Shown here: piece by piece, positions 39,800 through 55,400 of the stretch
Numbering within the stretch: the stretch's first letter is position 1
How the letters are laid out: every line of letters begins with the position of its first letter
DNA from: Cellulomonas sp. C5510
GTDB lineage: Bacteria > Actinomycetota > Actinomycetes > Actinomycetales > Cellulomonadaceae
Length of the DNA stretch: 64,000 bases
Direction of reading: 5' to 3'
Assembly: GCF_019797765.1 (NCBI RefSeq)
Contig: NZ_CP081862.1
Location: forward strand, 3,720,001-3,784,000
Made by a program: the position numbers and the translations under genes
The notes under the pieces: generated by a model
Told to the model about the DNA's origin: nothing
Databases searched by the model: none
The model's input: the letters and a program-made list of their open reading frames with translations, nothing else

Positions 39800-40306
39800 A
39801 TGACGTTCCCTGTGCACCACCTGTCCCGTCCCGCCGGCGTGCTCGCGGGTGCCGCGGCGCTCGTGCTGTCCGTCTCCGCCTGCGGCGTGCTGGGCGGCCC
39901 CGACGACGCCCAGCGCGACTCCGCCTCCGGTGAGATCACGGAATCCGCCGAGGCCAGCGTCTTCTCGCTCGAGGTGAAGGACTGCCTCGTCATGCCGTCG
40001 GCCGACGAGACGATGGTCGAGTCCCTCCAGGCGCTGCCGTGCGACCAGCCGCACGACGGCCAGATCTACGCCGAGCAGACGCTCACCGAGCTGCCCGAGC
40101 AGACCGAGCTGGACGCGATGGCCCAGGAGTTCTGCCTCACGGAGTTCGAGCCGTTCGTCGGCGCGGCGTACGAGAGCTCGGTGCTCGAGGTGACGTTCCT
40201 GTACCCGACCGAGGAGAGCTGGGACCAGGGCGACGACGCGCTGCAGTGCGTGGCGCAGCACCCGTCCGAGATGGTGACGCAGTCGTTCGAGGGCTCCGCG
40301 CTCTGA
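39800..40306 (+). CDS. Secreted lipoprotein, septum-formation-like domain
   Basis: 168 residues. Signal peptide with lipobox LSVSAC (Cys at about 28), an acidic linker, then a domain with pairwise cysteines (VKDCLV, LPCDQPHDGQIYAEQTL, FCLTEF, LQCVAQHP) matching the actinobacterial Septum_form family. Probably a cell-surface lipoprotein with disulphides. The ATG at 39800 is chosen over an in-frame GTG seven codons upstream. It is divergent from the two-component operon. Confidence 0.85.
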   Translation: MTFPVHHLSRPAGVLAGAAALVLSVSACGVLGGPDDAQRDSASGEITESAEASVFSLEVKDCLVMPSADETMVESLQALPCDQPHDGQIYAEQTLTELPEQTELDAMAQEFCLTEFEPFVGAAYESSVLEVTFLYPTEESWDQGDDALQCVAQHPSEMVTQSFEGSAL

Positions 40307-40330
40307 CGGTGCTCCGCCGGTCGTCCGGCG

Positions 40331-41437
40331 TCACGGCCGGTCCGGCCGCACCCGCTCCCGTGGCGCGGCGACGGAGTCCCTGCGCACCAGCCGTGCGCGC
40401 AGCGCACGCGTGCTGGACCCGGCCGCCCGCCCCTCGATCCGCTGCACGAGCCGCCCGGCGGCTGCCCGCCCGAGCTGCCGCACCGGCTGCTCGACCATCG
40501 TCAGCGCGGGCACGGTGACGGTCGCCCACGGGTTGTCGTCGAACCCGACGACGGACAGGTCCTCGGGCACCCGGAGACCGAGGTCCCGGGCAGCGGCCAG
40601 CGTGCCGAGCACGGCGTCCGTCTCGGTGGCGAACACCGCCGTCGCGGGGTCGTCCCCGCCCAGCTGGCGCGTGACGAACCGGCGCACGCCCTCGATCGTC
40701 TGGCTGCCGGTCATCACCAGCGCCGGGTCGGGGTCGTGGCCGGCCTCGGCGAGGGCGTCGGCCCAGCCCAGCAGGCGGGCCCCGCTCGTCGGGAGGTCCC
40801 GGCGGCCGGCGTCGAGCAGCGTCCTCAGGGTCCGCGGTCGGTGCGGGAGCGCCGGCCCCCACGCCAGGGCGACGCGCCGGTGCCCGGCGGACGTGAGGTG
40901 CCGGACGGCCTCCGCCGCGATGTCGTGGTTGTCGATCACGACCGCGTCGACGTCGAGGCCCGGGAGCTCCCGGTCGACGGCGACGACGGGGACGCCGCGC
41001 TCCACGGCGGCCCGCAGGTGCGCGGGGTCCTCGGCGGCCCCGACCGCGGAGGCGACGATCAGGCCGTCGATCTGCTTCCCGAGCAGGACGCGGACGGCGT
41101 CCCGCTCGCGGTCGGCGCTCTCGTCGGTGTTCACCACGATGGTGTCGTAGCCGGCGGAGCGCGCCGCGTCGGCGATGCCCCGGACGACGCCGGCGAAGAA
41201 GGGGTTCCCGATGTCGGCGACGACGACGCCGATCGTGTGCGTGACGCCCGTCGCCATCGACCGGGCGAGGGTGTTCGGCTGGTAGCCGAGCGCGGCGGCG
41301 GCTTCCCGCACCCGCTCCTGCAGCCCGGCGTGGACGGAGCCGTAGCCGCCGAGCACCCGGGCCGCCGTCGCACGGGCCACACCTGCCGCCTGGGCGACGT
41401 CGGTGACCGTGACTCGGGAGGGTGACGCGCCGGACAC
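40331..41437 (-). CDS. LacI-family regulator of the fructosamine-type operon
   Basis: 368 residues: LacI HTH (VTVTDVAQAAGVARATAARVLGGYGSV; note ARATAARVL where most have TVSRAL) and a sugar-binding domain (TIGVVVADIGNPFFAGVVRGI to LSVVGFDDNPWATVTVPALTMVEQPV). It follows the amidohydrolase-like gene by 32 bases on the same strand, but also has its own leaderless-type signal (TAGGCT, seven bases, GTG). The palindromes with central CG in front of the operon's first gene are its likely targets (inference), giving negative control relieved by the substrate or a phosphorylated intermediate. Confidence 0.9.
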   Translation of the reverse strand: MSGASPSRVTVTDVAQAAGVARATAARVLGGYGSVHAGLQERVREAAAALGYQPNTLARSMATGVTHTIGVVVADIGNPFFAGVVRGIADAARSAGYDTIVVNTDESADRERDAVRVLLGKQIDGLIVASAVGAAEDPAHLRAAVERGVPVVAVDRELPGLDVDAVVIDNHDIAAEAVRHLTSAGHRRVALAWGPALPHRPRTLRTLLDAGRRDLPTSGARLLGWADALAEAGHDPDPALVMTGSQTIEGVRRFVTRQLGGDDPATAVFATETDAVLGTLAAARDLGLRVPEDLSVVGFDDNPWATVTVPALTMVEQPVRQLGRAAAGRLVQRIEGRAAGSSTRALRARLVRRDSVAAPRERVRPDRP

Positions 41438-41444
41438 GCCGGTG

Positions 41445-41450
41445 AGCCTA
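41445..41450 (-). promoter_or_regulatory. -10 hexamer TAGGCT for the second lacI gene
   Basis: Minus-strand TAGGCT, seven bases, then GTG. It lies in the short gap after the amidohydrolase-like gene, so the regulator may be expressed independently of the operon. Confidence 0.5.
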
Positions 41451-41469
41451 TCCGACGCGTCACCCCTGA

Positions 41470-43008
41470 TCACGACTCGTGCACCACGGTCCCGCCGGCG
41501 ACCGTGAGCACCGCTGCCGCCCCGGCGAGCCCGTCGGCGGGCACGCGCAGCAGGTCGCGGTCGAACACCGCGACGTCCGCACGCAGACCGGGTCGCAACG
41601 CCCCGGTCCAGCCGTCGAGGCCCATCGCGGCCGCCGCCGTGCCCGTCCAGGAGTCGACGACCTGGGCACGGCTCAGCCCGCGCTCCGGGTGCCAGCCGCC
41701 GGCCGGTCCGCCGCCCGGGAACCGCCGCTCGGCGGCCGACAGCATCGCCTCCCCGAGAGACGGGAAGAACAGCGGCAGGTCCGTCCCGGAGGTCAGTCGG
41801 GCGCCGGCGGAGAGCAGGCGGGCGTGGTTGCCGAGGCGCTGCTCCCGCTCGGGTCCGAGGATGTCCCGGACCAGGTCCGGGGTGTACCCCTCGATGAGCA
41901 GGAGCTGCGTGTACACCTCGCAGAACACGCCCAGCGCGCCGGCCCGCCGGGCGTCCTCGTCGGTGATCAACGAGACGTCGGACAGGGAGAGCAGGTCCGG
42001 CAGGGCCATGCCGTCGAGCAGCATCTCCTCGATGACGTCGAGGCAGCGCCCGACGGCACCGTCCCCGTCGGCGTTGAGCGCGAGGTTGTGCCCGGCGGCC
42101 ACGATCCTCCGGGCCTCGCGCCGGAGAGCGGCGTAGTCCACGGTGGGGTGCTGGCGCGCGGTCCACTCGTCGGCGGGTCCGGCGAGGTCACCGGTGTACT
42201 CGTCGAAGGAGCCGTCGGTCATGAGCTTGAACCCGTGGAACCGCAGACGGGGAGACGCGTGCGCGGCACGTGCCCGGTCCCCGAAGGCGAGGTCCGCCGG
42301 CGCCTGCACCGGCTGCGAGGCGAAGCTGATCCGCAGGTGCACGTCGCCGGAACGGGTCAGGTCGTCGAGGACGGGGAGCATGCCGAGGTAGTCGTCGAAC
42401 GCGATCTCCTTGACGGACACCACGCCCTGGGCCGCCATGCGCCGGGCCGTGTCGGTGTAGGTGCGTCGCACCACGCCGGCGTCCCGGGCGAGGGCCGCGT
42501 AGAGCGGGGCGAGCGCCTCGTTCGATCCCGGGTCCAGCCCGTCGCCGAGCTCGGCCCGGGCGGCGCGTCCGGCGACCAGCCACTCCCGGCCCGCCCCCAG
42601 CACCACCGCGGCGCTGCCGGGGAAGGCCGCGTCGAGCGCGTCGGGCAGACCCGCCCGCGCGGCGTCGCCGAGGACCGCGTCCCGGGCGAGCAGCACCCCG
42701 CCGGCCGGTGGTTCCGGCGCGGACCGCAGCGCGTCGACGACCTCGGACGCCGTGGTGCACCCGGAGACGTCCGCACCCGCGTGCTCGAGCATGAGGGCCG
42801 TCACGAACGTGTGGTTGTCGTGCAGCCCCGGCACCACGAGCCCGTCACCGGCGTCCACGACGCGGGTGCGGGGGCCGACGTGCTCGTCCCCCGGGCCCCG
42901 GCCCGCCGACAGGATGCGGTCGCCCGCGACGGCCACGTGGCCCGGGGACGCCGTCCCCGTCGCCGCGTCGTAGACCGCCTCGGACCGGATGATCAGGTCC
43001 ACGGCCAT
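41470..43008 (-). CDS. Amidohydrolase-fold protein (YtcJ/Amidohydro_3-like) with altered metal ligands
   Basis: 512 residues. The family frame is clear: N-terminal AVDLIIRSEAVYDAATGTA, PGLHDNHTFV at the first barrel strand, HGFKLMTDGSFDEYTG in the middle, SGTDLPLFFPSLGEAML and GLRADVAVFDRDLL at the end. By eye the usual metal-binding HxH is HTF, the HAIGD motif is NADGD, and the EH-type motif is replaced (SLSDVSLI), so it may use fewer metals or be non-hydrolytic. Its start overlaps the transporter's stop by one base (TGATG), so it is co-translated in the operon. It may act on the amine or amino acid released from the sugar adduct, a guess. Confidence 0.8.
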   Translation of the reverse strand: MAVDLIIRSEAVYDAATGTASPGHVAVAGDRILSAGRGPGDEHVGPRTRVVDAGDGLVVPGLHDNHTFVTALMLEHAGADVSGCTTASEVVDALRSAPEPPAGGVLLARDAVLGDAARAGLPDALDAAFPGSAAVVLGAGREWLVAGRAARAELGDGLDPGSNEALAPLYAALARDAGVVRRTYTDTARRMAAQGVVSVKEIAFDDYLGMLPVLDDLTRSGDVHLRISFASQPVQAPADLAFGDRARAAHASPRLRFHGFKLMTDGSFDEYTGDLAGPADEWTARQHPTVDYAALRREARRIVAAGHNLALNADGDGAVGRCLDVIEEMLLDGMALPDLLSLSDVSLITDEDARRAGALGVFCEVYTQLLLIEGYTPDLVRDILGPEREQRLGNHARLLSAGARLTSGTDLPLFFPSLGEAMLSAAERRFPGGGPAGGWHPERGLSRAQVVDSWTGTAAAAMGLDGWTGALRPGLRADVAVFDRDLLRVPADGLAGAAAVLTVAGGTVVHES

Positions 43009-44537
43009 CACGCACCCACCAGTCCGACCACGGCGAACCCGGCCGCCGCCACGACGAAGGCGATGGCCTGGTACGGCAGGTTCGTGATCCAGTGCCGGAA
43101 GAGGCCCACCTCGGTCGACGAAGCCGTGAGCAGGCCGACGTCGGAGGAGATCGATGCCGTCAGCCCCCAGGTGCCGGCGCTCAGCAGCGCGGCCACGGTG
43201 GCCCACAGGTTGGCGCCGGTCTGCTCGCAGAGCGGGACGAGCACCGGGATGAGCAGGATGTACAGGCTCCAGTTCAGCGTGACCAGGAGCTCGGTCACGC
43301 CGAACACGAGGAACACCGCGAGCGGCAGCCAGGCCGGGGCGACGACGCCCGACACGTGCTGGATGACGAACCCGGCGAAGTCCAGGTCCGCGATGAACGA
43401 GACCAGGATGTACGCGATGGCCATGAGCAGCACGAGGGAGAAGATGTCCTTCATCCCCTCGAGGACGGCGTCCAGGTAGCCGCTGGGCGAGGTCAGCCGC
43501 TGCGCGAGCAGCACGACGCCGGTGACGACGAGCGCGATGATGAAGGCATGCTGCACGCTGCCGGTGATCAGCATGCCGACGATGACGGCCGCGATCGAGG
43601 CGACCATGTTCAGCCAGTGCGGTGCGCGGCCGGCGGGCTCCGTGGCGGACGACGGCCCAGCCGCTTCGGCCCCAGCCGTCTGCCCGGCCTCCTCCTGTGC
43701 CTCGGCGGCCGCCGCGCGGCGCATCGCGCTGAGCATCGGGAGCACGCCGGCAGCGGTGAGGAGGGCGACCAGCACGATCGCCAGTGAGAAGAACAGGTAC
43801 GGGAGGACGTGCAGGTAGGCGGAGACCTGCTCGTCCGCGCTGACGACTCCCGCCGTGACCAGGAGGCCCGTCACCAGGACCGGGGTGGAGCCGATCGGGT
43901 TCAGCGTGCAGGCAGGCTCCGCGGTCGAGCGGATGAGCATCGCGCTGTACGCGCGCGGCAGACCGAAGCCCTTGTTCACGGGCGTCATCGAGACGCCGAC
44001 GCCGGATGTCGACAGGTAGGAGTCGTTCGAGAGCAGCCCGGTCGCCACGACGGTGACGAGCGAGGACCGCTTCGGACCGCGGGCCAGCCGCGCGGCGGCC
44101 TCGGCGAACGACGCGGCGAGCCCCATGTGCTCGAACACCCCGATGAGCCCGCCGATGAGCAGCAGCAGCACCAGCAGCTGGAGGTGATCGGCCACCGCCA
44201 CCTCGGTGAACAGGCGGTCGATCCAGAACCCGAAGAAGGCGCCACGCGCGAGCATCACCGCGCCGAGGAGCGATGCCCAGATGAACCCCTCGAGGACCTG
44301 CTGCGTCATGAGGATGAAGATGAACAGCGTCCCGGCGGGCAGCAGCGACCACGCACCGTACGTCGCGCCCTCACCCTGCGGGGCGAAGGCGAGGACCAGG
44401 AGGAAGATGACGGCCAGGCCGGCGTAGGCGAGCAGCGTCCGGCGGTCGCCGAGCCGCCGGACCAGGGCGGACCACGGCCCCTGCGGCTGCTGCGGCGCCC
44501 CGGTCATGGAACCCTCGGAAGCGAGTGTCGAGCTCAT
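43008..44537 (-). CDS. NhaC-family sodium/proton antiporter-like transporter
   Basis: 509 residues with about 12 TMs. NhaC marks: GGLIGVFEHMGLAASFAEAAARL, LLSNDSYLSTSGVGVSMTPVNKGFGL, and the second-half LGMKD-like region DAVLEGMKDIFSLVLLMAIAYILVSFIADLD. A cytosolic Glu/Ala-rich loop (about 265-300) splits the halves. Family members exchange sodium for protons or organic ions. In this operon it replaces the APC permease (FrlA) of classic frl operons, so it is the probable substrate or product carrier. AAGGAG lies seven bases before the ATG. It begins one base after the kinase stop. Confidence 0.85.
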   Translation of the reverse strand: MSSTLASEGSMTGAPQQPQGPWSALVRRLGDRRTLLAYAGLAVIFLLVLAFAPQGEGATYGAWSLLPAGTLFIFILMTQQVLEGFIWASLLGAVMLARGAFFGFWIDRLFTEVAVADHLQLLVLLLLIGGLIGVFEHMGLAASFAEAAARLARGPKRSSLVTVVATGLLSNDSYLSTSGVGVSMTPVNKGFGLPRAYSAMLIRSTAEPACTLNPIGSTPVLVTGLLVTAGVVSADEQVSAYLHVLPYLFFSLAIVLVALLTAAGVLPMLSAMRRAAAAEAQEEAGQTAGAEAAGPSSATEPAGRAPHWLNMVASIAAVIVGMLITGSVQHAFIIALVVTGVVLLAQRLTSPSGYLDAVLEGMKDIFSLVLLMAIAYILVSFIADLDFAGFVIQHVSGVVAPAWLPLAVFLVFGVTELLVTLNWSLYILLIPVLVPLCEQTGANLWATVAALLSAGTWGLTASISSDVGLLTASSTEVGLFRHWITNLPYQAIAFVVAAAGFAVVGLVGA

Positions 44538-44538
44538 C

Positions 44539-45420
44539 TCAGAACTCCTTCCCGTAGCCGAACGCACCCTCGACGAGGCACTGCTTCGCGGCGAAGTCGG
44601 CCGCGAGAGCGAGTGCCTCCTGAAGGTCGACCACGGGCGGGAGGGCGCCCCGGCGCCACCCGGACCGCAGGCAGCTCACCGCGAACGCCGTGGAGAACGC
44701 GTCCCCACACCCCATGGTGTCGTACGCCTCGATGGGCGTCGCCGTCCCGTGCAGCGTCCCGCGTCCGTCCACCAGCACGGATCCGTGCATGCCGCGCGTC
44801 GCGAGCACCAGGGCCGGGCCCCGGCGGCGGACGTCGTGCGCGAGGGAGATCGTGTCGTCCAGGGTCAGGTGCTCGCACGACAGGAGCGCCAGGTCGACGG
44901 CCGGGCACACCTCATCCAGGTACGGGGCGGTCCGGAACTCGTCCTCGTCGGAGAAGTCGAAGAACACGAGCGCGGACGTGGAACGCAGCTGACCGAGCTG
45001 GTCGGCCACGCCTCCGTAGACGCCGGAGTGCACGAGGTCGAAGCCGGCCAGGTAGGCGATGTCGTCGCTCTCGAGCCTGAACGGGTCGGCGGTGGTGACA
45101 CCACCCTCGTTCCAGTCGCCGAACACGCGGTCGCCGTCGACGACGGTGACGTCGCAGTACCCGGTCTCGCCGGGCTTCTCCTGGCACCGGTCGAGGGCCA
45201 CGCCCTGGTCGACGAGCGCCTCGCGGACGTGTGCGGCGGCCTCATCGGTGCCGAAGACGCCGAGGTAGGCCGCCTCCGCCCCGAGCTGGCCGGCGTACAC
45301 AGCGAAGTTCACGCTGTTGCCGCCGGGGTACATGACCCGGCGGTCGAGGAAGCGGTCGACGACGTTGTCGCCGAAGCCGACCACGCGAGGGGGCGTGGCC
45401 GCCTGCGTCGTTGCAGACAT
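44539..45420 (-). CDS. PfkB-family fructosamine kinase, FrlD-like
   Basis: 293-residue ribokinase-fold enzyme. FrlD-type marks: VVGFGDNVVDRFLDRRVMYPGGNSVNFAVYAGQLG, VFGDWNEGGVTTADPF, LVFFDFSDEDEF and the catalytic loop IEAYDTMGCGDAFSTAF with the general-base Asp, ending AAKQCLVEGAFGYG. E. coli FrlD phosphorylates fructoselysine at O6. The sugar adduct used here is unknown. It sits between the deglycase and the transporter with 15-base and 1-base gaps. Confidence 0.88.
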   Translation of the reverse strand: MSATTQAATPPRVVGFGDNVVDRFLDRRVMYPGGNSVNFAVYAGQLGAEAAYLGVFGTDEAAAHVREALVDQGVALDRCQEKPGETGYCDVTVVDGDRVFGDWNEGGVTTADPFRLESDDIAYLAGFDLVHSGVYGGVADQLGQLRSTSALVFFDFSDEDEFRTAPYLDEVCPAVDLALLSCEHLTLDDTISLAHDVRRRGPALVLATRGMHGSVLVDGRGTLHGTATPIEAYDTMGCGDAFSTAFAVSCLRSGWRRGALPPVVDLQEALALAADFAAKQCLVEGAFGYGKEF

Positions 45421-45435
45421 GGGGAGGTCCTCTTC

Positions 45436-46449
45436 TCAGTACTCGACGACGCGGTAGTAGCGCCGGGTGTCCAGGGGGTGGTTCCGCACCTGCTCCAGGT
45501 GCTTGGAGATGCGGATGGTGATGGAGTCCATGACCAGCGGCGCGAACAGCCCGCGCAGGTCGGCGTCGACGCCCTCGAGCGGGTAGTCGGCGGAGTCGAG
45601 GACGGTGACCTGGTCGGAGTAGGTCTCGGCGAAGCGGCGCACCCGCTCCATGAGCGGCCGGCTCTCGTCCTCGCCGACGAACAGCATGAGGCTGGTGTCC
45701 TTCTCGACCAGCTCGAGCGAGCCGTGGAAGAACTCCGCCCCGTGCACACGCGTGGTGTGCAGCCACTGCATCTCCTCGAGAATGCACATCGAGTAGTTGT
45801 AGGCGAAGCCCCACAGGTTCCCGGCTCCGACGAGCATGTGGTAGCCGGTGTCCCGGTGCCGTTCGGCGAACGCCGCCGCGACCGGCTCCGCCTGCTGCTG
45901 GATCGCGAGCAGGATCTCCTCGGACCGGTCCACGGCGGCGGCGAGACGGGGGTAGCCGTCGAACTCGCCGCGGCGCGCGAGGATCGCGGTCATCAGCAGC
46001 GTGAGCTGGATGTCGTAGGACTCCGACGCCGTCTCGTCGTCGGCCGGGTTCACCAGCACGTGGTCGACGATCCGCGCCAGCGGGGACTCCGGGTCGCCGG
46101 TCATGCCGATCGTGGTGACCCCTCGCTCGCGGCAGTACTCGGCCGCGGCGACCGTCTCCTTGGTCGTGCCGGAGAGCGACGCCAGCACGACGACCGACTC
46201 GGCGGTCAGGTGGCGGTCGCCGGAGACGACGAGCTCCGCCGCGATCGGGGTGCGGGTGAGCAGCGTCGAGCGGGTCGACATCAGCAGGGCGTAGGGCCAC
46301 ATCGCGGCGTGCGAACCGCCGGAGCCGATGAGGAAGAGGGCGTTCGGGTCGCGGTCCACGACGAGCTCGGCGAGCTCCTCGATGCGCGGGCGGAGGCGGA
46401 CGGCGCCGCCGACCACCGTGGAGAACCGGTCCGGGTCGAAGCCGAGCAT
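45436..46449 (-). CDS. SIS-domain sugar-phosphate deglycase, FrlB-like
   Basis: 337 residues with two SIS domains. Matches FrlB/FraB-type deglycases: LFLIGSGGSHAAMWPYALLM, VVVLASLSGTTKETVAAAEYC, and the catalytic stretch VHGAEFFHGSLELVEKDTSLMLFVGEDESR with the Glu and His of the known EFxHG motif, ending RRYYRVVEY as in FrlB (RRYYGGLVEY). It would cleave a fructosamine 6-phosphate to glucose 6-phosphate plus the amine. Start at the ATG 46449 with AGAGAGG upstream. An open frame continues upstream into a dehydrogenase fragment but that is chance. First gene of the operon. Confidence 0.87.
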   Translation of the reverse strand: MLGFDPDRFSTVVGGAVRLRPRIEELAELVVDRDPNALFLIGSGGSHAAMWPYALLMSTRSTLLTRTPIAAELVVSGDRHLTAESVVVLASLSGTTKETVAAAEYCRERGVTTIGMTGDPESPLARIVDHVLVNPADDETASESYDIQLTLLMTAILARRGEFDGYPRLAAAVDRSEEILLAIQQQAEPVAAAFAERHRDTGYHMLVGAGNLWGFAYNYSMCILEEMQWLHTTRVHGAEFFHGSLELVEKDTSLMLFVGEDESRPLMERVRRFAETYSDQVTVLDSADYPLEGVDADLRGLFAPLVMDSITIRISKHLEQVRNHPLDTRRYYRVVEY

Positions 46450-46469
46450 GGAAGACCTCTCTGTCGGGT

Positions 46470-46483
46470 GGAGACCGCTCTCT
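46470..46483 (-). promoter_or_regulatory. Operator copy 2 (proximal) of the fructosamine-type operon
   Basis: Minus strand AGAGAGCGGTCTCC, 12 of 14 identical to the perfect upstream palindrome and with the same central CG. Centre-to-centre distance is 17 bases. It lies 21 bases upstream of the deglycase start. Confidence 0.65.
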
Positions 46484-46486
46484 TTG

Positions 46487-46500
46487 AGAGACCGGTCTCT
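46487..46500. promoter_or_regulatory. Operator copy 1, perfect 14-bp palindrome AGAGACCGGTCTCT
   Basis: Perfect palindrome with central CG, the form expected for LacI-family repressors. With the proximal copy it forms a tandem pair just upstream of the operon, suggesting cooperative binding. Presumed ligand: the LacI protein encoded last in the operon. Confidence 0.7.
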
Positions 46501-46535
46501 GGCGCGCACAAAGTAGCGCCCACAGCCGCGGACGG

Positions 46536-46782
46536 TCAACACGCCCGCGGTCGTGGGCGCCAGGTCCAGGTCCGGGTGGGCGGCGAGCACCTCGTCGCGG
46601 GCGCGCAGCACCGACGCGGGGTCGGTGACGTCGACCTGCACCTGCTCCAGGCCGTCGACGGGGGCGGGCCGGCGCCCCCCGACGACGACGGTGCTGCCCA
46701 GGCGGGCCAGCCGGTGCGCGAGGCCGAGCCCGATGCCGGACGTGCCGCCGACGACCAGCGCGGTGCGGCGCGAGACGTCCAT
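46536..46782 (-). pseudogene. 5' fragment of a short-chain dehydrogenase/reductase gene
   Basis: The first about 80 codons encode an SDR start: MDVSRRTALVVGGTSGIGLGLAHRLARLG (TGxxxGxG NAD(P)-binding loop), VVVGGRRP, VQVDVTDPASVLRARDEV and HPDLDLAPTTAGV, where the NNAG region ends and homology stops. The YxxxK catalytic part is absent. A good ribosome site (AGAAGGA) and the normal divergent arrangement with an XRE regulator remain. The fragment meets the operator region of the fructosamine-type operon at about 46536. It is a remnant truncated by insertion or deletion; the missing 3' part is not in this window. Confidence 0.75.
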
Positions 46783-46898
46783 GGTCGTTCCTTCTCTCCG
46801 TGTGGGGGACCTCCAGGTTCGGCGCGGCCCCGCGCGCGGGGGACGGCCCCGCGGTTCCTGGGAGTGCCGGGACCACCCCGGGGGGCGCGCAGCGCGCC

Positions 46899-46904
46899 TA
46901 CCGT
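46899..46904 (+). promoter_or_regulatory. -10 hexamer TACCGT, leaderless-type
   Basis: TACCGT then six bases then the GTG start of the XRE regulator. Confidence 0.55.
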
Positions 46905-46910
46905 GGTCCG

Positions 46911-47807
46911 GTGAGCACCGACGACGGCACCCGGCGGCTCGGCGCGTACCTGCGCGCCCGCCGCGCGCTCGTCACGCCCGAGCAGGCCGGCATCCCCGGC
47001 GGCGCGAACCGGCGGGTCGCCGGGCTGCGCCGCGAGGAGGTCGCACTGCTCGCCGGCATCAGCGCCGACTACTACCTGCGGCTCGAGCAGGGCCGCGACC
47101 GCAACCCGTCCGCCCAGGTGCTCGACGCGCTGGCGCGGGTGCTGCGGCTCGACGACGTCGAGACCGCGTACCTGCGGGACCTCGCCGCACCCCGGCCCCG
47201 CTCCCGGCCCCGCCGCCGGCCGCCCGAGCGGGTGCCGGAGCGGCTGCACCACCTGCTCGCGGCGCTCGACGTCCCGGCGTTCGTCGAGGGCCGCGCGTTC
47301 GACGTCCTCGCCGCCAACCCGCTCGCCGTCGCGTTCTCGCCGCGGCTGCGACCGGGCGAGAACCGGCTCCGGTCCCTCCTGCTCGACCCCGAGGAGCGGG
47401 CCTTCCACACCGACTGGGACGCCGCCGTCGCCGGGTTCGTGGGAGCGTTCCGGCAGAGCGTCGGGGACGACGCCGACGACCCGCGCGTGGTCGAGCTGGT
47501 CGGCGAGCTGTCCCTGTCCAGCGCCCGGTTCCGCTCCCTGTGGGCGCGCCAGGACGTGCGCCCGCTCACCGGCGGCACGACGGTCGTGCACCACCCCGTG
47601 GTCGGCGAGCTGACGCTGCACCGCGACAAGCTGCCGGTCGAGGGCGTGGTGCTCGTCGTGTACTACGCCGACGCGGGCAGCCCCAGCGCGGAGCGGCTGC
47701 GGCTGCTGGGGGCGCTCGCGGCGGAGGCCGCGGGGGTGCCGGGGGACGTGGCTGGTCGTCGTGGAGGTGGCGCTGCTGGCGCTGGCGCTACGGGCGGGGC
47801 GGCGTGA
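46911..47807 (+). CDS. XRE-family regulator with MmyB-like ligand-binding domain
   Basis: 298 residues: helix-turn-helix (VAGLRREEVALLAGISADYYLRLEQGRDRNPSAQVLDALARVL) and a C-terminal MmyB-type domain (FVEGRAFDVLAANPLAVAFSP to VVGELTLHRDKLPVEG). Such regulators typically face an SDR gene and control it; here that partner is broken, so the regulator may be orphaned. The C-terminal 20 residues are Gly/Ala-rich and atypical. GTG start directly after TACCGT. The stop overlaps the next start as GTGA. Confidence 0.9.
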   Translation: MSTDDGTRRLGAYLRARRALVTPEQAGIPGGANRRVAGLRREEVALLAGISADYYLRLEQGRDRNPSAQVLDALARVLRLDDVETAYLRDLAAPRPRSRPRRRPPERVPERLHHLLAALDVPAFVEGRAFDVLAANPLAVAFSPRLRPGENRLRSLLLDPEERAFHTDWDAAVAGFVGAFRQSVGDDADDPRVVELVGELSLSSARFRSLWARQDVRPLTGGTTVVHHPVVGELTLHRDKLPVEGVVLVVYYADAGSPSAERLRLLGALAAEAAGVPGDVAGRRGGGAAGAGATGGAA

Positions 47808-48760: not shown

Positions 48761-49117
48761 TCACAGCCACTTCGCCGACACCCACAAATCAGCAGCAGAC
48801 GGCCATTCGTCCGGCAGGTCGTTGGAGTACCATACCAGCTCGATTTCGCCGACTTCTCCGGTGTCCTTGACCCAGAAAATCATCTCGCCCATCGGAAATC
48901 CAGAGTCATCGCGTCCACAGAAAAGCTGGCTATCGGCCGGAACAGGCCGCTGAACAGAAGAGTCGTCGGGGCCGAGCCGAGCGAAGGTTGAGACCTCTTC
49001 CTGCACCACCTCGGAGATGCCCGAATAAGGGGACATGGATTCGAACCCGAGCAGTTCACGGGCGCGCTCAATCAACGCGATTGCTCTTTGCGTGGAAAGC
49101 AATCGGGGAGCCATCAC
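48761..49117 (-). CDS. Putative immunity protein for the RHS toxin
   Basis: 118 residues, acidic and aromatic at the C-terminus (VGEIELVWYSNDLPDEWPSAADLW). No family recognised. The call rests on context: its ATG overlaps the RHS toxin stop by four bases (ATGA) at the 3' end of the toxin gene, the usual position of a cognate immunity gene. Like the toxin tip it is visibly richer in A and T than neighbouring genes, consistent with recent modular exchange. An alternative reading as an unrelated small protein is less likely. Confidence 0.75.
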   Translation of the reverse strand: MMAPRLLSTQRAIALIERARELLGFESMSPYSGISEVVQEEVSTFARLGPDDSSVQRPVPADSQLFCGRDDSGFPMGEMIFWVKDTGEVGEIELVWYSNDLPDEWPSAADLWVSAKWL

Positions 49118-49420
49118 TTCCCCTTCCGGAATATGCTCCCGATTAGGAGCCGTCCCTCCATCACGGAGCCTCGCACTTCGAGTTGGTAGCCGTAGACCCG
49201 CACGATTCGCGCGAACGGACCTCGAGCGGGTAGAGACGGGCGAACGGCGCCGATCACGGCACGCAGGAGGGCTCGCTCAGAGCCCGCACGTGTCAACACG
49301 GGACCCAGAAGGTGTTTAGCGCGGAAGATGTGCCCGTACCTCTGAGGTGTCATCGCGTAAGCGATGGCATCATCCGTGAAGGTAGCAGCCGAGGCGCCCG
49401 ACGCCTTCGGTGGCGCCTGG
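49114..49420 (-). other. C-terminal toxin tip of the RHS protein, AT-richer module
   Basis: About the last 95 codons, following the linker with SGSHATQAPPKASG. Base use is less GC-biased than the rest of the gene and matches that of the immunity gene. His about 2183 in HIFRAKH followed by Lys and His, and the basic end, are compatible with a metal-independent RNase. No named toxin family was assigned. Confidence 0.6.
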
Positions 49421-52400
49421 GTGGCGTGAGATCCAGACGTCACCTGGCCCGACCGACCCACGGTCGACCGTCCGCTCGGATTACGCCTCGCGGCGGCCTG
49501 GGCTGCACGCTGAGCTTGCGCTGCCCGGTGTGCTGCGGTGATGCGGTTACCCACCGCTCGCAGCCCCGACGTCACCCCGTAGCCGAGACCGCCGGTTGCT
49601 GCCCCGGCGGCGGCTCCGAGGCCGACTTGCGTGCCGAAGCCGCCCCAGGAGTACTGCCCGTTGCTCCCGGTGACGGCGTAGCTGGCTGCCGCCCCGGCTG
49701 CTCCGGCTGCAGCACCGCCGGCAACCGCGACCGCGACACCCGCGACCACGCCACCGCAGATCCCGGCGGTCGCGGCGATGCACGCGCCGACAGCGACGCC
49801 CACCGCGATACCCGCGGCCACGCCTGCGACGGCTCCCCCGACCTCGCGCCAGTTCACGTCGTCCAGCCAGTCCGGCCAGTACCCGAGCACGTCGACTGTG
49901 GTCAGCGGGTCGGCAAGGACGTAGGCGTAGGCGTTGAGGGTGCCGGGGGCGGTGAGGAGTCCCTCCCAGGCGTCCTGGGTCGTGAACGTCCCGGTGGTCG
50001 GGTCGAACGTGCGCGCGTAGAACCACACCTCACCGAGCCCGAGGTCGGCCGTCTGGGAGGTGTACCCGTGATCGGCGTCCCACCCCGCGGTGCGGGTAGT
50101 GGCGTCGCCCCACGGGTCGTAGGAGGCGACCTGGGTGATCGTGTCCCCCACCGCCTGGGCGATCACGGAGCCGAGGGCGTCCGTCAGCTCCCACACCGCC
50201 CCGGACGTCACCCCGCCGGGCAGGACGGTCGGGTCGTTGTTCCCCACGCCACCCGTCGTCGCCGTCCGGGCCGACGACTGGACCGCGAGGTCCCCGGTCA
50301 CATCCCGCGCGTACGTGGTGGTGCCGAACTGGTCGTCGGTGGTGGCGACCTGGGTCAACCCGTCCCACGTCGCGGTGGCGGTGTGCGTCACGAACTCGGT
50401 CGCCGTCGTCGTGGTCACCGTGCGCCCAAGGCCGTCGCGGGTGAACGCGACGGTCCGGTCCAGGTCGGTGACCTGTCCGAGGCGCCCGTCCGGCCCGTAG
50501 ACGTAGTCGCGCACGAACGTTCCCGCGGTGAGAAGGCCCCCGCCGGCCGGGGTCGTGGCCTCGCGGGTGCGGTTGCCCGCCTCGTCGTACCGGTACTCGG
50601 TCACCGACCCGCCCCGGGCGGCTGCCATCAGCCCGGACAGGACGTCGGCGCCGTCGTCCTGCTGCGTGGTGGTGTCGGTGGTGCGGGTGAGCCGGTCCGC
50701 CTGGTCGAAGACCGCAGCCCGGGTACGGGTGGTCCCGTCCGGGCCTGTGGCCCTAGCGGCGGTGCGGTTGCCGGCCGCGTCGTAGGCGTACGTCAGCTGC
50801 GTGGCCGGCGTCTCGGGAGCCGTCTCGCCCGATCCGGCGTCCGAGGCCGCGGGGGTGTCCGGCGCGCGCGGAGCCGGCACCACGGGGACCTGCGCGAGGT
50901 CCCACGCCTCCGCCTCGTCGGTGGCTTCAGGACCGGGGATCCGGTCGGTCTCGGTGCCGCCGGTCAGCCGCCCGAGCGGGTCGTAGGTGTACGCACCGGA
51001 CAGGGTCCGTCCGCCCGCGTCGACACGGGTGCGCGTGGCGACGTGGCCGGTGGGCGTGTACGTCTGGTCGATCTGGATGTCCCAGACCCCGGACCCGGAT
51101 GTGCCGGTCCCCGGCAGGGTGCGTCCGGCGAGGTAGTCCGGCCCCGGCAGGCAGGTGTCGCACGTCAGCGCCACCTCGCCGGGCTCGGGCGCGATGAACG
51201 GGTCGACTTCGGTGACGCGGTGGCGGATGCCGGTGGTGCGCCCCGCGGGATCGTAGGCGAAGGCGGTCATCGGGCCGGGCGTGCCGTCCGCGTTGGTGCG
51301 GCTGATCGCGGTGACCTGGTCGGTCTGGTCGTACGCGTAGGTCATGACCCCGGCCGGGGTGCCCTGCTCGGCCACGCGGCCTGCGGCGTCGTGCGCCCAC
51401 GTCTGCGTCGTCCCGTCGGGGGTGGTCAGGCTGACCTGACGGCCCGCAGCGCTGTAGGCGGTGCTCACCGTGCCTGCGACGGTCCGCTGGGCGGTGCGGC
51501 GGCCCTCGGCGTCGTAGGTCCACCCGGTGACGCCCGTGGGGTCGGTCATCGCGATCGCGTTCCCGGTGGCGTCGTACTCCAGCTCGACCCGCAGCGGCTC
51601 GTCACGGGCGGCACGCGCCGCACGACGGCCCTGGGTGTACTCCACCGACCGGACCCGTCCCGCGTCGTCGTACGCGTACGTGACGGTCCGGGCGTCCGGG
51701 TCCGTCTCTCGCGCGAGCCGTCCCGCGTCGTCGTAGGCGGAGGTCCAGGTGTGGCCCAGCGGATCGGTCTCGGCCACGAGCCGCCCACCGGGGGTGTAGG
51801 CGTACCTAGTCACGGCGCCGCGCGGGCCAGTGACCTGCGACAGGTCCCCGACGGGGGTGTAGGCGTACGTGGTGGTGACGTTCTCGTCATCGGAGGCGTC
51901 GCCTGTGCCGGTGGCGTTCTGCACGACCTCGACGAGCTGCCCGGCCCGGTCGTAGGAGTACGCGGTCACCACCCCGTCGGGGTCCGTGGTCGCGGTCTGC
52001 CTCCCCGCACCGTCGTAGGCGAACGTCGTGACGGAGCCGGTCGGGTCGGTGACCCCCATCAGCTGCCCGGCCGGGTCGTAGGAGTACGCCGTGGCGGCAC
52101 CCAGGCCGTCGGTCTCGGCGGTCACCCGACCAGCGGCGTCGTAGGTGTACTCCCGCACCGCGCCGCCCTCGACACCGGCGGCCAGGACCCTCCCCGCGAG
52201 GTCGAGGTTCCCGGTCTGGCGCACACCGTCGGCGTCCAGGGTCGCGACCTGGTGACCGTCTGCGTCGTACTCGAAAGCCGTGGTGGCTCCGGTCCGGTCG
52301 GTGACGGCCGTGACCTGCCCGGCGGCGTCGACGGCGACCTCGGTGGTGCGCCCCGCCGGGTCCGTGGTCGCGATGAGCCGTCCGACCGCGTCGTAGGCGT

Positions 52401-55400
52401 ACCGGGTCGTCCCGGCCGGACCGGACTCGGCGACGACGCGGCCTGCGGCGTCGTAGGTGAACGTCGTCGTGGCACCGGCCGCGTCGCGGGTCTCCAGAAG
52501 CCCGCCACCCGGGGCGTAGGCGAAGGCGGTGACGACCCCGTCGGGATCGCTCTGGGCGATGAGCCGCCCGCCCTGGTCGTACTCCCAGGTCGACACCCCG
52601 CCGCCCGGGTCGGTCTGGGCGACCACGTTGCCGGACTCGTCGAGGGTCCGCTCCCAGACTCCGCCGTTCGGATCGGTCACAGCGACCACCCGGTGCGCGG
52701 CGTCGAGGGTGTATGCGGTCGTCGCACCGGTCGGGTCGGTCTCGCGCACCACGACGTCCTCGCCGTTGTAGGCGTACGTCGTCACCCCGCCGTTCGGGTC
52801 GGTGACACGGGTCAGGCGCCGGCCGGTGTCCCAGGTCTGGCGGGTCACGGCCCCGGTGGGATCGGTGATCCGGGTGAGGTTGTCGTTCGCGTCGTACCCG
52901 TAGGTGGTGGCCGCCCCGGTGGGGTCGGTCTCCGACACCAGACGCCCCACCGCGTCGTACCCGTATCCCCAGGTGGCGCCGGAGGGCAGAGTGCGGGCAG
53001 TCAGGCGGTTGCCGGCGTCGTAGGCGAACGTCGTGGTCCGCCCGAGCGGATCGGTGCTCGACGTCTGGTTCCCGCGGGCGTCGAATGTCGCCGTCCAGGT
53101 CTCGTCGGCGGCATCGGTGAACGCGACAGGGTTACCGGCGGCGTCGTACCGCGTGACCTCGACCACCCCGTCGGGGTGCTGCACCTGGGTGGGCCGCCCC
53201 GCCCCGTCCCGCTCGATGCGGGTCGTCACGGCGGCACCGCCGGCGCCAGGTGCGGTCACCTGCGTGACCCGGCCGAGCGCGCCGAGCACCAGCTCCGTCG
53301 CACCAGTCCCGGGGACGTCGACGGCTGTGGGCCGGCCCTGGGCGTCCAGCTCGTAGGTGATGCGTTCCCCGTCGGGGCCGACCACGGCGGTCGGTGCGTC
53401 GAGCGCCCCGTACTCCACTCTGGTGGTGTGCCCGAGGGGGTCGGTGAACCCGGTGACCCGGGACCGCGCGTCGACCTGGTACCGCCAGACGGACCCGGCG
53501 GCGTCGGTGTAGTCCGTCCCGCCCGTGCGGTACGCGAAGGTGCGCGTCCCACCGACGCCGTCCCCCTGGGACACCACACGGCCGGCCGCGTCGTAGCTGT
53601 TCGTCAGGTACACCGCTCCCGCGGCGTCCCGGGCGACCGTGATCCGGTGGGCGGTGTCGTAGTCGAAGCCGCGCACGCGCCCGTCAGGCAGGGTGATCGT
53701 GCGCAGGTCGAGGGCGTCGTCGTACCCCAGCCGCCAGGCCCTCCCGTCGGGTGCGGTCAGCGCCGTCACGAGCCCGCGCGCGTCGGACTCCACGGCGATC
53801 CGCTGGTCGCCGGGCAGCACCACGGCGGTCAGCGAGCGGAACAACGGGTCCCCCGACAGTGGCGCGTACTCGAACCGGGTGACCGCGCCGGTGGGGTCGC
53901 GGCGCTCGACCACGTCCCCGACGCCCTCGGGATGGGACGTGTCGAACCGCCACCTGGTGCCATCGTCCACGGTCAGGACCAGCTGCCCGCTGCCGGCCTC
54001 GGCCAGGGCCGCCCCGGTATTGGGGTCCGCGCTGTACCCACCGGTCCCGTCGGGCGTGAAGACGAACGACGCGCCGTCGCCGCGCACGACCATGACAGAC
54101 CCGTCGGCGAACCGCTGGGCCCTCGCGGTCAGGTCGCTCGTCCACCCGGCCCCGAACCGGCTGACCCGCCCGTCCTGGGAGTTGTGGATCAGCGCGATCT
54201 GCGTGTCCGACCCGCCGGGGCCGGTCAGGTGGAACAGGTCCTCGAGCTCGACCAGGTTGCCGGTGGCGAAGCTGACGGGGTCGGCGCCGTAGGCGGCGTA
54301 GTTCTTGAACCCCAGCTGCATCCACGTCGCGACCTGCGCCGCCGACGGCGGTGACGGCCACCCGCCCCCGCGGTCGGGGTCCGAGCAGTCGAACCCTTGG
54401 TTCTCCAGCTGGAGGCCCAGCGAGGTGAAGACCCCGTCGACGATGAAGGAGAACCCGTTGTCGATGACGGGCCGGTCGAAGTTGTGGTCGAGGAACAGCG
54501 CCTCGAGGTGGATCAGGGCGCCCGGAAGGCCCGCGTACTCGGGGTAGGTCAGGTTGACCCGCGACTTCGGGTTCGCCGGGCGACCGGTGTAGACGGGCAG
54601 GACGTTCAGCATCGTGGCGCGGGCCTGCTCGTCGAGGCCGCCGCCGCGCGAGTACACCTCGGACCCACCGTTGCCGACGTTCCCCCACGCGTCCCCGTCG
54701 TTGCCGTTGAACCCGAACGTCACGGTCAGGTCCGGGTGGTGGGCGACCGCCATCCCCGCCCGGATGTCGCGCCCCAGGTCCGGGATCGGAGTGGTGCGGG
54801 TGACGACGACGTCGGCGTTGCAGGTCTGGGTGAGTCGGGCCGCGACCTGGTTCGCGAGGGCGACGTTGTACCCGACCTCCGTCACGCGCGGACCCGGGGA
54901 GTTCGCGAACGCCCGGTCGTTGTCCGGGTCGAGCACGACGCGCGGGCGTGGGTCGCCGAGGTCCTTGCCGCCGATGACGACGAACTGCGACAGGTGGTCC
55001 AGCTCGCCCACCACCACCGACCGCGCGGCGTCGAGGTACGACGGGACGACGGTCCACCGGTCGGCGTCGGACTCACGGGTCATCAACCGCACCGACCCGG
55101 GACGGATGCCGTCCAGCTCGGTCGGCGCGACCTGCACCTCGATCCGGACGCCCGGCGTGGTCTCGCCGTCGTCGCCGGCCATCGCCTCACCCAGCCCGGC
55201 GTCCAGGTTCGCCGCGTCCGGGTGCGGCGCCTGCCCCACGGGCAGCCCGCCGATCAGCGTGGAGCCGTCCTCGGCCTGCGTCACCGGCAGCCCGGAGGCA
55301 CCCGCTCGACGAGCTGCCGCGGCAGTGCCAGGCTCCGGGGCGTCCGGGGAGTCGTGGGGGAACGCAGTGACCTGCTCGCCGTCCGGGTCGAGCGCCGTCA

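What the first reader, a model, noticed from the sequence alone, without database searches (positions are those of the whole stretch)
40331..46449. Operon for an Amadori-type adduct with NhaC carrier and amidohydrolase-fold partner
Seen: FrlB-like SIS deglycase, FrlD-like kinase, NhaC transporter, amidohydrolase-like protein and LacI regulator in one direction, with gaps of 15 and 1 bases, a TGATG overlap, then 32 bases. Known: classic frl/fra operons use an APC or other carrier and a GntR-type regulator in E. coli. Inference: a variant pathway for a fructosamine in which the released amine or amino acid is handled by the amidohydrolase-like enzyme and the carrier exchanges sodium or product. 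The combination deserves a test.
Basis: partly seen in the sequence, partly recalled or inferred. Interest (0 to 1): 0.8.

Follow-up and report, generated by a model that had tools for sequence, protein, structure and literature searches.

The report
Sugar-amine operon with rebuilt amidohydrolase
Five neighbouring bacterial genes look like a transferable kit for feeding on sugar–amino-acid adducts (products of the browning reaction), and the kit carries a hydrolase-like protein whose metal-binding site has been replaced by a new, strictly conserved set of residues, so it probably does a step that has not been described.

Summary
In detail: five co-directional genes at 40331-46449 (minus strand), gaps as stated. 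The SIS protein keeps the deglycase Glu/His pair; the kinase is FrlD-like. The same five-gene order occurs in 6 of 6 other actinobacterial loci found, and 6.2 kb of it lies in a second genome of the genus at another site (89% identity). A sister genome shows the empty site. Tandem LacI-type operators precede the operon.

The main finding is the amidohydrolase-like protein. In 55 non-redundant relatives its metal site is dismantled (HxH to HxF in all, His345 to Asp in 54) and Lys201, Tyr367 and Leu414 are invariant; none of 24 ordinary relatives has these. Of 31 loci with this clade, 31 have an FrlD-like kinase, 30 a SIS deglycase and 31 an NhaC or DcuC/YfcC carrier, across Actinomycetota, Bacillota and Enterobacteriaceae; the operon is also on Enterococcus plasmids.

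Amadori-type catabolism is well supported. The reshaped protein's reaction is unknown; I favour a metal-free cytoplasmic step on the amino-acid half of the adduct, the role FraE asparaginase has for fructose-asparagine. The papers I could search do not describe it. New variant of a known kind.

The parts
45436..46449 (-). SIS-domain protein, predicted 6-phospho-fructosamine deglycase; Glu226 and His242 match the acid/base pair of FraB/FrlB
   Evidence: Best solved relatives 8glr/2a3n 232/231 bits, 3eua 178, 3fkj 157, 9otj group about 130; E and H kept in 69 of 69 SIS rows compared. Below the NCBIfam FrlB equivalog cut-off (73 of 430 bits)
44539..45420 (-). PfkB-family kinase, FrlD-like
   Evidence: PF00294 93 bits; best NCBIfam model fructoselysine 6-kinase, 158 bits, below its cut-off of 247
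43008..44537 (-). NhaC-type carrier, predicted importer of the adduct
   Evidence: PF03553 49 bits, cut-off 23; 31-34% identical to the NhaC of L008, L026-L028 and L032 that also lie in such clusters
41470..43009 (-). Amidohydrolase-fold protein with rebuilt active site (Phe69, Lys201, Asp345, Tyr367, Leu414; numbering of P0004 from GTG 43011, subtract 1 for the ATG start)
40331..41437 (-). LacI-family regulator, last gene of the operon
   Evidence: PF00356 and Peripla_BP models; same position in 6 of 6 other actinobacterial loci
46487..46500 (.). Palindrome AGAGACCGGTCTCT, putative operator 1
   Evidence: tandem palindromes at the same place in G057, L003, L004, L029, and one perfect plus one imperfect copy in L005 and L015; L011 not tested because its ORF start was over-extended. 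Binding not shown
46470..46483 (.). Palindrome-like GGAGACCGCTCTCT (plus strand), putative operator 2
   Evidence: with 46487 the only two places in the window within 1 mismatch of AGAGANCGNTCTCT
46528..46782 (-). First 85 codons of a short-chain dehydrogenase gene, cut off by the operon; 246 codons in three sister genomes and 248 in a fourth
40309..46561 (.). Stretch that stands in place of 579 bases of the sister genome G001 (limits from blastn, so approximate)
   Evidence: window 39893-40308 = L100 1-416 (97%), window 46562-47751 = L100 996-2184 (95%)

Best explanation
A LacI-repressed, horizontally acquired operon that imports a fructosamine (Amadori-type) adduct through an NhaC carrier, phosphorylates its sugar with the FrlD-like kinase, and splits the 6-phosphate with the SIS deglycase into a hexose 6-phosphate and the free amine. 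The fourth protein descends from metal-dependent amidohydrolases but has lost most of the metal site and gained invariant Lys201 and Tyr367 and near-invariant Asp345 around the kept His67 and Asp411. I propose that it is an active metal-free enzyme that works in the cytoplasm on the amino-acid half of the imported adduct (or of its phosphate) and makes it acceptable to kinase and deglycase, the role that FraE asparaginase has for fructose-asparagine. Shown by sequence: gene content and order, the residue exchange, operator-like palindromes, transfer. Inferred from the families: import, kinase and deglycase steps, repression. Hypothesis: the reaction of the fourth protein and the identity of the amine (a basic amino acid such as lysine or arginine is my best guess).
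Against: SIS and kinase fall below the NCBIfam FrlB and FrlD cut-offs. No activity, substrate or binding data. The FraE analogy is weak in two ways: FraE is reported periplasmic while this protein looks cytoplasmic, and an asparaginase gene lies in only 6 of 15 fra-type loci seen. The fourth protein is dispensable with a related SIS and kinase. L008 has Asn at 345, and five Lachnospiraceae/Clostridiales rows lack Lys262 and Glu365. The basic amino acid guess rests on family resemblance: the window's NhaC is only 22% identical to a riboswitch-linked NhaC, and no lysine riboswitch lies in six related loci. No sigma-70-like promoter was found.
Confidence: 0.55

Rival explanations
1. The amidohydrolase-like protein acts after the deglycase, on the released amine or amino acid, and the carrier exports that product in exchange for new adduct.
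For: It goes with the carrier: 31 of 31 loci have NhaC or DcuC types, and both are missing in the 8 loci with a periplasmic binding protein. YfcC is named a putative basic amino acid antiporter by NCBIfam (match 398 bits, cut-off 500).
Against: No exchange shown; the carrier families are broad. A canonical amidohydrolase also lies beside a DcuC carrier without SIS or kinase (L117), so the pairing with the carrier may be inherited.
Confidence: 0.2
2. It acts on the sugar half, as an epimerase or isomerase that widens the range of adducts, as FrlC does for psicoselysine (FrlC role recalled).
For: FraB-type operons of two Bacillota genomes have an FrlC-like protein in the accessory slot (L073, L075); Lys, Asp, Tyr and His without metal would suit proton transfer.
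Against: Lachnospiraceae cluster L026 has FrlC-like proteins as well as the reshaped protein, so the roles are probably not the same. No direct evidence.
Confidence: 0.15
3. It is a pseudoenzyme: it binds the adduct or phosphate, or partners another protein, without catalysis.
For: Three of four ligand histidines are lost in most clade members (two of four where position 313 is His).
Against: New polar residues at strand ends are invariant over proteins only about 30-60% identical, which suits a working pocket better; binding alone could still explain it.
Confidence: 0.15
4. The operon's substrate is not an amino-acid Amadori compound but another amino-sugar-like adduct handled by the same enzyme folds.
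For: SIS and kinase are below the FrlB and FrlD equivalog cut-offs; the amine is not identified.
Against: The nearest relatives of both are Amadori enzymes, and L026 includes a kinase over the FrlD cut-off (340 of 247 bits).
Confidence: 0.12

Closest known systems
fra operon of Salmonella (fructose-asparagine; FraB, FraD, FraA, FraE, FraR)
   Same: SIS deglycase, PfkB kinase, an ion-coupled or exchange-type carrier, a regulator and one accessory enzyme; FraB is the closest solved relative of the SIS in the Bacillota and enterobacterial versions (328 bits)
   Different: Accessory enzyme is asparaginase, not an amidohydrolase fold; carrier is DcuA/DcuB (PF03605), not NhaC or DcuC; regulator GntR, not LacI; the window's SIS is nearer 8glr/2a3n than FraB
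frl operons of E. coli and B. subtilis (fructoselysine; alpha-glycated amino acids)
   Same: Deglycase and kinase types, catalytic Glu/His
   Different: Other importers (an ABC importer in B. subtilis, PMC12632257 passages; the E. coli permease is recalled), no amidohydrolase-fold partner described there, GntR-type FrlR
gfr operon of Salmonella (PTS; GfrE, GfrF)
   Same: The window's SIS is closest to 8glr/2a3n, which I recall to be a Salmonella Gfr-type protein (not confirmed: one search gave only noise)
   Different: PTS uptake with phosphorylation (PMC12675984 passages) instead of a carrier and a kinase; no amidohydrolase-fold partner named
Amidohydro_3 proteins such as 3icj and 3igh (uncharacterised metal-dependent hydrolases)
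   Different: Second His of HxH, usually the strand-5 His, and the strand-6 His are lost; Phe69, Lys201, Asp345 and Tyr367 are specific to the clade

Membership tests
FrlB/FraB/GfrF-type SIS deglycases | Full-length similarity to a solved or tested deglycase | tested here: met
   Residues 1-337 align to 8glr, 232 bits; 3eua, named putative fructose-aminoacid-6-phosphate deglycase, 178 bits
FrlB/FraB/GfrF-type SIS deglycases | General base Glu and general acid His, 16 residues apart | tested here: met
   Glu226 and His242; 69 of 69 rows keep both, 66 with EMQW-type and 3 with EMQR; residue numbers of FraB recalled
FrlB (NCBIfam NF008481 equivalog) | Score over curated cut-off | tested here: not met
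   73 of 430 bits
FrlB/FraB/GfrF-type SIS deglycases | Cleaves a 6-phospho-fructosamine | not testable with these tools
   Needs enzyme assay
FrlD fructoselysine 6-kinase (NF007321) | Score over curated cut-off | tested here: not met
   158 of 247 bits; still its best NCBIfam model
Amidohydrolase superfamily, Amidohydro_3 | Fold and family profile | tested here: met
Amidohydrolase superfamily, metal-dependent type | Metal ligands HxH, Lys, His, His, Asp | tested here: not met
   Window: His67, Phe69, Lys262, Asn313, Asp345, Asp411, so three of four ligand His are gone
NhaC-type Na+/H+ antiporter family | PF03553 profile | tested here: met
   49 bits, cut-off 23, residues 213-505
NhaC-type Na+/H+ antiporter family | Sodium or proton exchange | not testable with these tools
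   Needs transport assay
fra operon | FraE-type asparaginase and DcuA/DcuB carrier in the operon | tested here: not met
   The five window genes have neither
LacI-family autoregulated operon | LacI HTH and sensor domains | tested here: met
   PF00356 43 bits, Peripla_BP models
LacI-family autoregulated operon | Palindromic operators with central CG at the operon start | tested here: met
   Tandem sites in 7 of 8 actinobacterial loci counting window and G057; L011 not tested. Binding untested

The most novel reading that the evidence does not exclude
The protein at 41470-43009 founds a metal-independent branch of the amidohydrolase superfamily: the metal centre was swapped for a Lys/Asp/Tyr set when the protein, perhaps once a carrier-linked hydrolase, was recruited into the breakdown of glycation adducts, and it performs a reaction on Amadori compounds that is not yet known.
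Probability: 0.45. Interest if true: 0.78.

Novelty: new variant of a known kind. Interest (0 to 1): 0.6.

Why it matters
Glycated amino acids from heated food, plants and decaying matter feed gut and soil bacteria; known routes (frl, fra, gfr) matter for gut colonisation, and FraB is pursued as a drug target (PMC12051030, abstract start). This variant is widespread and mobile: 133 Enterococcus plasmid records match the operon at 95% identity or more (126 over at least 80% of it), 105 of them typed conjugative; it also lies between pyrB and argF in a Klebsiella pneumoniae record. Finding the adduct and the job of the metal-less protein would add a catabolic step, and the clade with its ordinary relatives offers a clean case of a metalloenzyme site being rebuilt, testable with one purified protein and a small panel of adducts.

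Tried and rejected
Lysine riboswitch as a substrate clue: none in six related loci. Five related genomes held six riboswitch matches; by the downstream frame only one of them (L111) precedes an NhaC-type gene, 22% identical to the window's NhaC. So the lysine idea rests on families, not on regulation here. In C. difficile an NhaC gene and yfcC lie under lysine riboswitches; its yfcC-linked amidohydrolase is M20D, another family (PMC11477304, passages). lysW as an NhaC-superfamily member: PMC5584792, passages.

Literature: ten searches, seen as listings. Among the papers listed (9 of 9; 20 of 99), only PMC5270733 holds amidohydrolase together with Amadori terms, and its passages do not connect them; 33 of 48 hits and 79 of 99 were not listed. 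Most subscription journals are not held. PMC12051030 does not hold E214 or H230. Papers looked at by passages only: PMC4072780, PMC9609667, PMC5270733, PMC12675984, PMC11477304, PMC5584792, PMC12632257.

Limits: L033 (amidohydrolase-like gene in two frames) and L001 (the window again) were left out of the residue tables; L034 is counted as canonical. Kinase rows under 150 bits and L028 were left out of the tree. Trees are quick ones (SH-aLRT only, LG+G4) with long-branch warnings. One search uses patterns drawn from the clade, so its linkage counts lean towards it; one search is the less biased check, with flanks of about 1.5 kb, in which the SIS gene is out of view for the three rebuilt cases too. 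Gene frames in fetched loci are mechanical ORFs, some over-extended. E214/H230, the role of FrlC and the Gfr identity of 2a3n/8glr are recalled.
Full report
What is there. The five genes exist as described: SIS 45436-46449, PfkB kinase 44539-45420, NhaC 43008-44537, amidohydrolase-like 41470-43009, LacI 40331-41437, all on the minus strand, with gaps of 15 and 1, a TGATG overlap and 32 bases. Pfam assigns each above its cut-off. The SIS protein matches solved SIS proteins over its whole length: 8glr and 2a3n (232 and 231 bits), 3eua (178), 3fkj (157), the 9otj group (about 130). I take the 9otj group to be FraB: SIS proteins of fra-type loci share its EMQWIHSACIHSGEFFHGPF stretch, and one chain, 9otu, has Ala for the Glu of that motif. 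In the window protein the Glu and His are at 226 and 242. PMC9609667 says that FraB and FrlB use a conserved general acid and base (passages); the FraB residue numbers are recalled. The kinase's best named model is fructoselysine 6-kinase, below its cut-off.

Control and mobility. Upstream of the SIS start lie two 14-base palindromes (46487-46500 and 46470-46483), the only two places in the window within one mismatch of AGAGANCGNTCTCT. Tandem palindromes sit at the same place in G057 and L003 (same motif) and in L004 and L029 (TGGTACCGGTACCA twice); L005 and L015 have one perfect and one imperfect copy. L011 was not tested because its frame start was over-extended. This fits repression by the operon's own LacI protein; binding is not shown. 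The operon is patchy in the genus: the amidohydrolase-like gene occurs in 2 of 60 genomes of the genus, own genome included. G057 has 6.18 kb of it (window 40357-46518) at 89% identity with no match in the flanks compared. G001 shows the empty site: 579 bases stand in place of window 40309-46561, and its SDR gene has 246 codons where the window keeps 85; two more genomes also have 246 and a fourth 248.

The neighbourhood test. A scan of one genome for each of 84,980 species gave 32 loci. One, L034, is an ordinary distant relative. Of the other 31, 31 have an FrlD-like kinase (cut by the contig end in L028), 30 a SIS deglycase (not L028), 12 an NhaC and 19 a DcuC-type carrier. The 6 actinobacterial loci have the window's five-gene order. 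Bacilli mostly have SIS-kinase-GntR-amidohydrolase-DcuC (L008: GntR-SIS-kinase-NhaC-amidohydrolase), Enterobacteriaceae SIS-kinase-amidohydrolase-DcuC-GntR, Lachnospiraceae larger clusters; in L026 there is a second kinase over the FrlD cut-off and an FrlC-like protein below the FrlC cut-off. The DcuC carrier of L006 scores 398 bits against the YfcC model, cut-off 500. The same operon lies on Enterococcus plasmids (133 records at 95% identity or more, 126 over at least 80%, annotated region), between pyrB and argF in a K. pneumoniae record and in 1 of 5,426 E. coli genomes.

A less biased check. One clade member searched in 398 Bacilli genomes at E <= 1e-40 gave 27 places in 21 genomes. Three have the rebuilt site (L114-L116), each beside kinase, GntR and DcuC. 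The other 24 have the ordinary site (L126 is broken and only partly readable), and 0 of 24 lies beside SIS or kinase within about 1.5 kb. One of them, L117, lies beside a DcuC carrier, which hints at an older partnership of hydrolase and carrier.

The rebuilt site. Numbering is that of P0004, from GTG 43011. Ordinary relatives have His67-x-His69, Lys262, His313, His345, Gln367 and Asp411. In 55 clade proteins (under 99.5% identity to each other) Phe69, Lys201, Tyr367 and Leu414 are invariant; none of 24 canonical rows has them. Asp345 is in 54 of 55 (Asn in L008) where 24 of 24 canonical rows have His. Position 313 is Asn in 32, Thr in 17, His in 6. Lys262 is kept in 49 and Glu365 is present in 50; five Lachnospiraceae/Clostridiales rows have neither. 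The AlphaFold2 model is confident (mean pLDDT 94.4); its nearest solved folds are the uncharacterised metal-dependent hydrolases 3icj and 3igh. Residues 201, 313, 345, 365 and 367 fall in or just after predicted barrel strands (197-205, 310-313, 342-344, 363-366). The pocket looks rebuilt rather than left to decay; this is inference, since I had no coordinates to inspect.

History. In SIS and kinase trees the operons fall into two lineages: Actinobacteria, Lachnospiraceae and Fontibacillus L008 (SIS nearest 8glr), and other Bacillota with Enterobacteriaceae (SIS nearest the FraB structures) (quick trees with long-branch warnings). Two operons of Fontibacillus phaseoli (L008, L010) have amidohydrolase-like proteins 54% identical, kinases 42% and SIS proteins 30%, so the SIS type can change while the reshaped protein stays. 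In Enterobacteriaceae 29 of 295 genomes had a close SIS, at 33 places: 3 with the amidohydrolase-like gene, 1 with neither partner (L040), 8 where a periplasmic protein 277 bits from the lysine/arginine/ornithine-binding protein precedes SIS and kinase, 15 fra-type and 6 PTS-type. Of the 15 fra-type loci, 15 have the DcuA/DcuB-type carrier and 6 an asparaginase by clustering; Pfam was run on one of each. In the 9 genomes of the second and third kinds the amidohydrolase-like gene is absent (E <= 1e-30). It therefore goes with the NhaC or DcuC carrier rather than with SIS and kinase as such.

Mechanism. Import, phosphorylation and deglycation are inferred from the families. For the fourth protein, the accessory slot in other FraB-type operons holds an asparaginase, which converts the adduct before the kinase (PMC4072780 and PMC9609667, passages), or an FrlC-like protein (L073, L075). 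The protein lacks the ordinary metal site, looks cytoplasmic, and goes with the carrier. A metal-free step on the amino-acid half of the imported adduct is the reading I prefer (about 0.4); action on the released amine 0.2, on the sugar 0.15, no catalysis 0.15. The amine may be a basic amino acid, by the binding protein of the sister lineage and the family names of the carriers; this is weak, and results against it are given above and under Tried and rejected.

Verdict. An Amadori-type operon, a known kind, in a version marked by a rebuilt amidohydrolase-fold protein. In ten searches of the held papers I saw no description of this link; long hit lists were seen only in part and subscription journals are largely missing.

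Noticed in passing
window 49114-55878 and 48761-49117: A 2254-aa frame full of YD-type repeats and, right behind it on the same strand, a 118-aa frame: it looks like an RHS-type protein with a small partner. Seen in the ORF list only.
   Followed up: no
window 46528-46782: SDR gene cut to 85 of 246 codons by the operon; its divergent HTH neighbour (46800-47807) is kept in sister genomes together with an uncut SDR.
   Followed up: yes
L104 10384-15939 and other Enterococcus plasmids: The operon is on 133 Enterococcus plasmid records; in some listed records an IS16 element lies within the matched stretch.
   Followed up: partly
L107 4568-14321: E. coli CT29 carries the operon with a piece of pyrB, next to IS elements, an integrase gene and tRNA-Phe, so probably on an island.
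   Followed up: no
L041-L048: Sister operons in which a lysine/arginine/ornithine-binding-like protein replaces both the carrier and the amidohydrolase-like protein.
   Followed up: partly
L026 8942-21085: A large Lachnospiraceae cluster adds a second kinase over the FrlD cut-off, two FrlC-like barrels, an Amidohydro_2 protein, a UPF0047 protein, BtpA and an FGGY kinase.
   Followed up: partly
L117 1495-4567: An ordinary Amidohydro_3 protein beside a DcuC carrier without SIS or kinase, perhaps the ancestral partnership.
   Followed up: partly
L033 10094-11224: The amidohydrolase-like gene of Paenibacillus sp. BJ-4 is in two separate frames.
   Followed up: no
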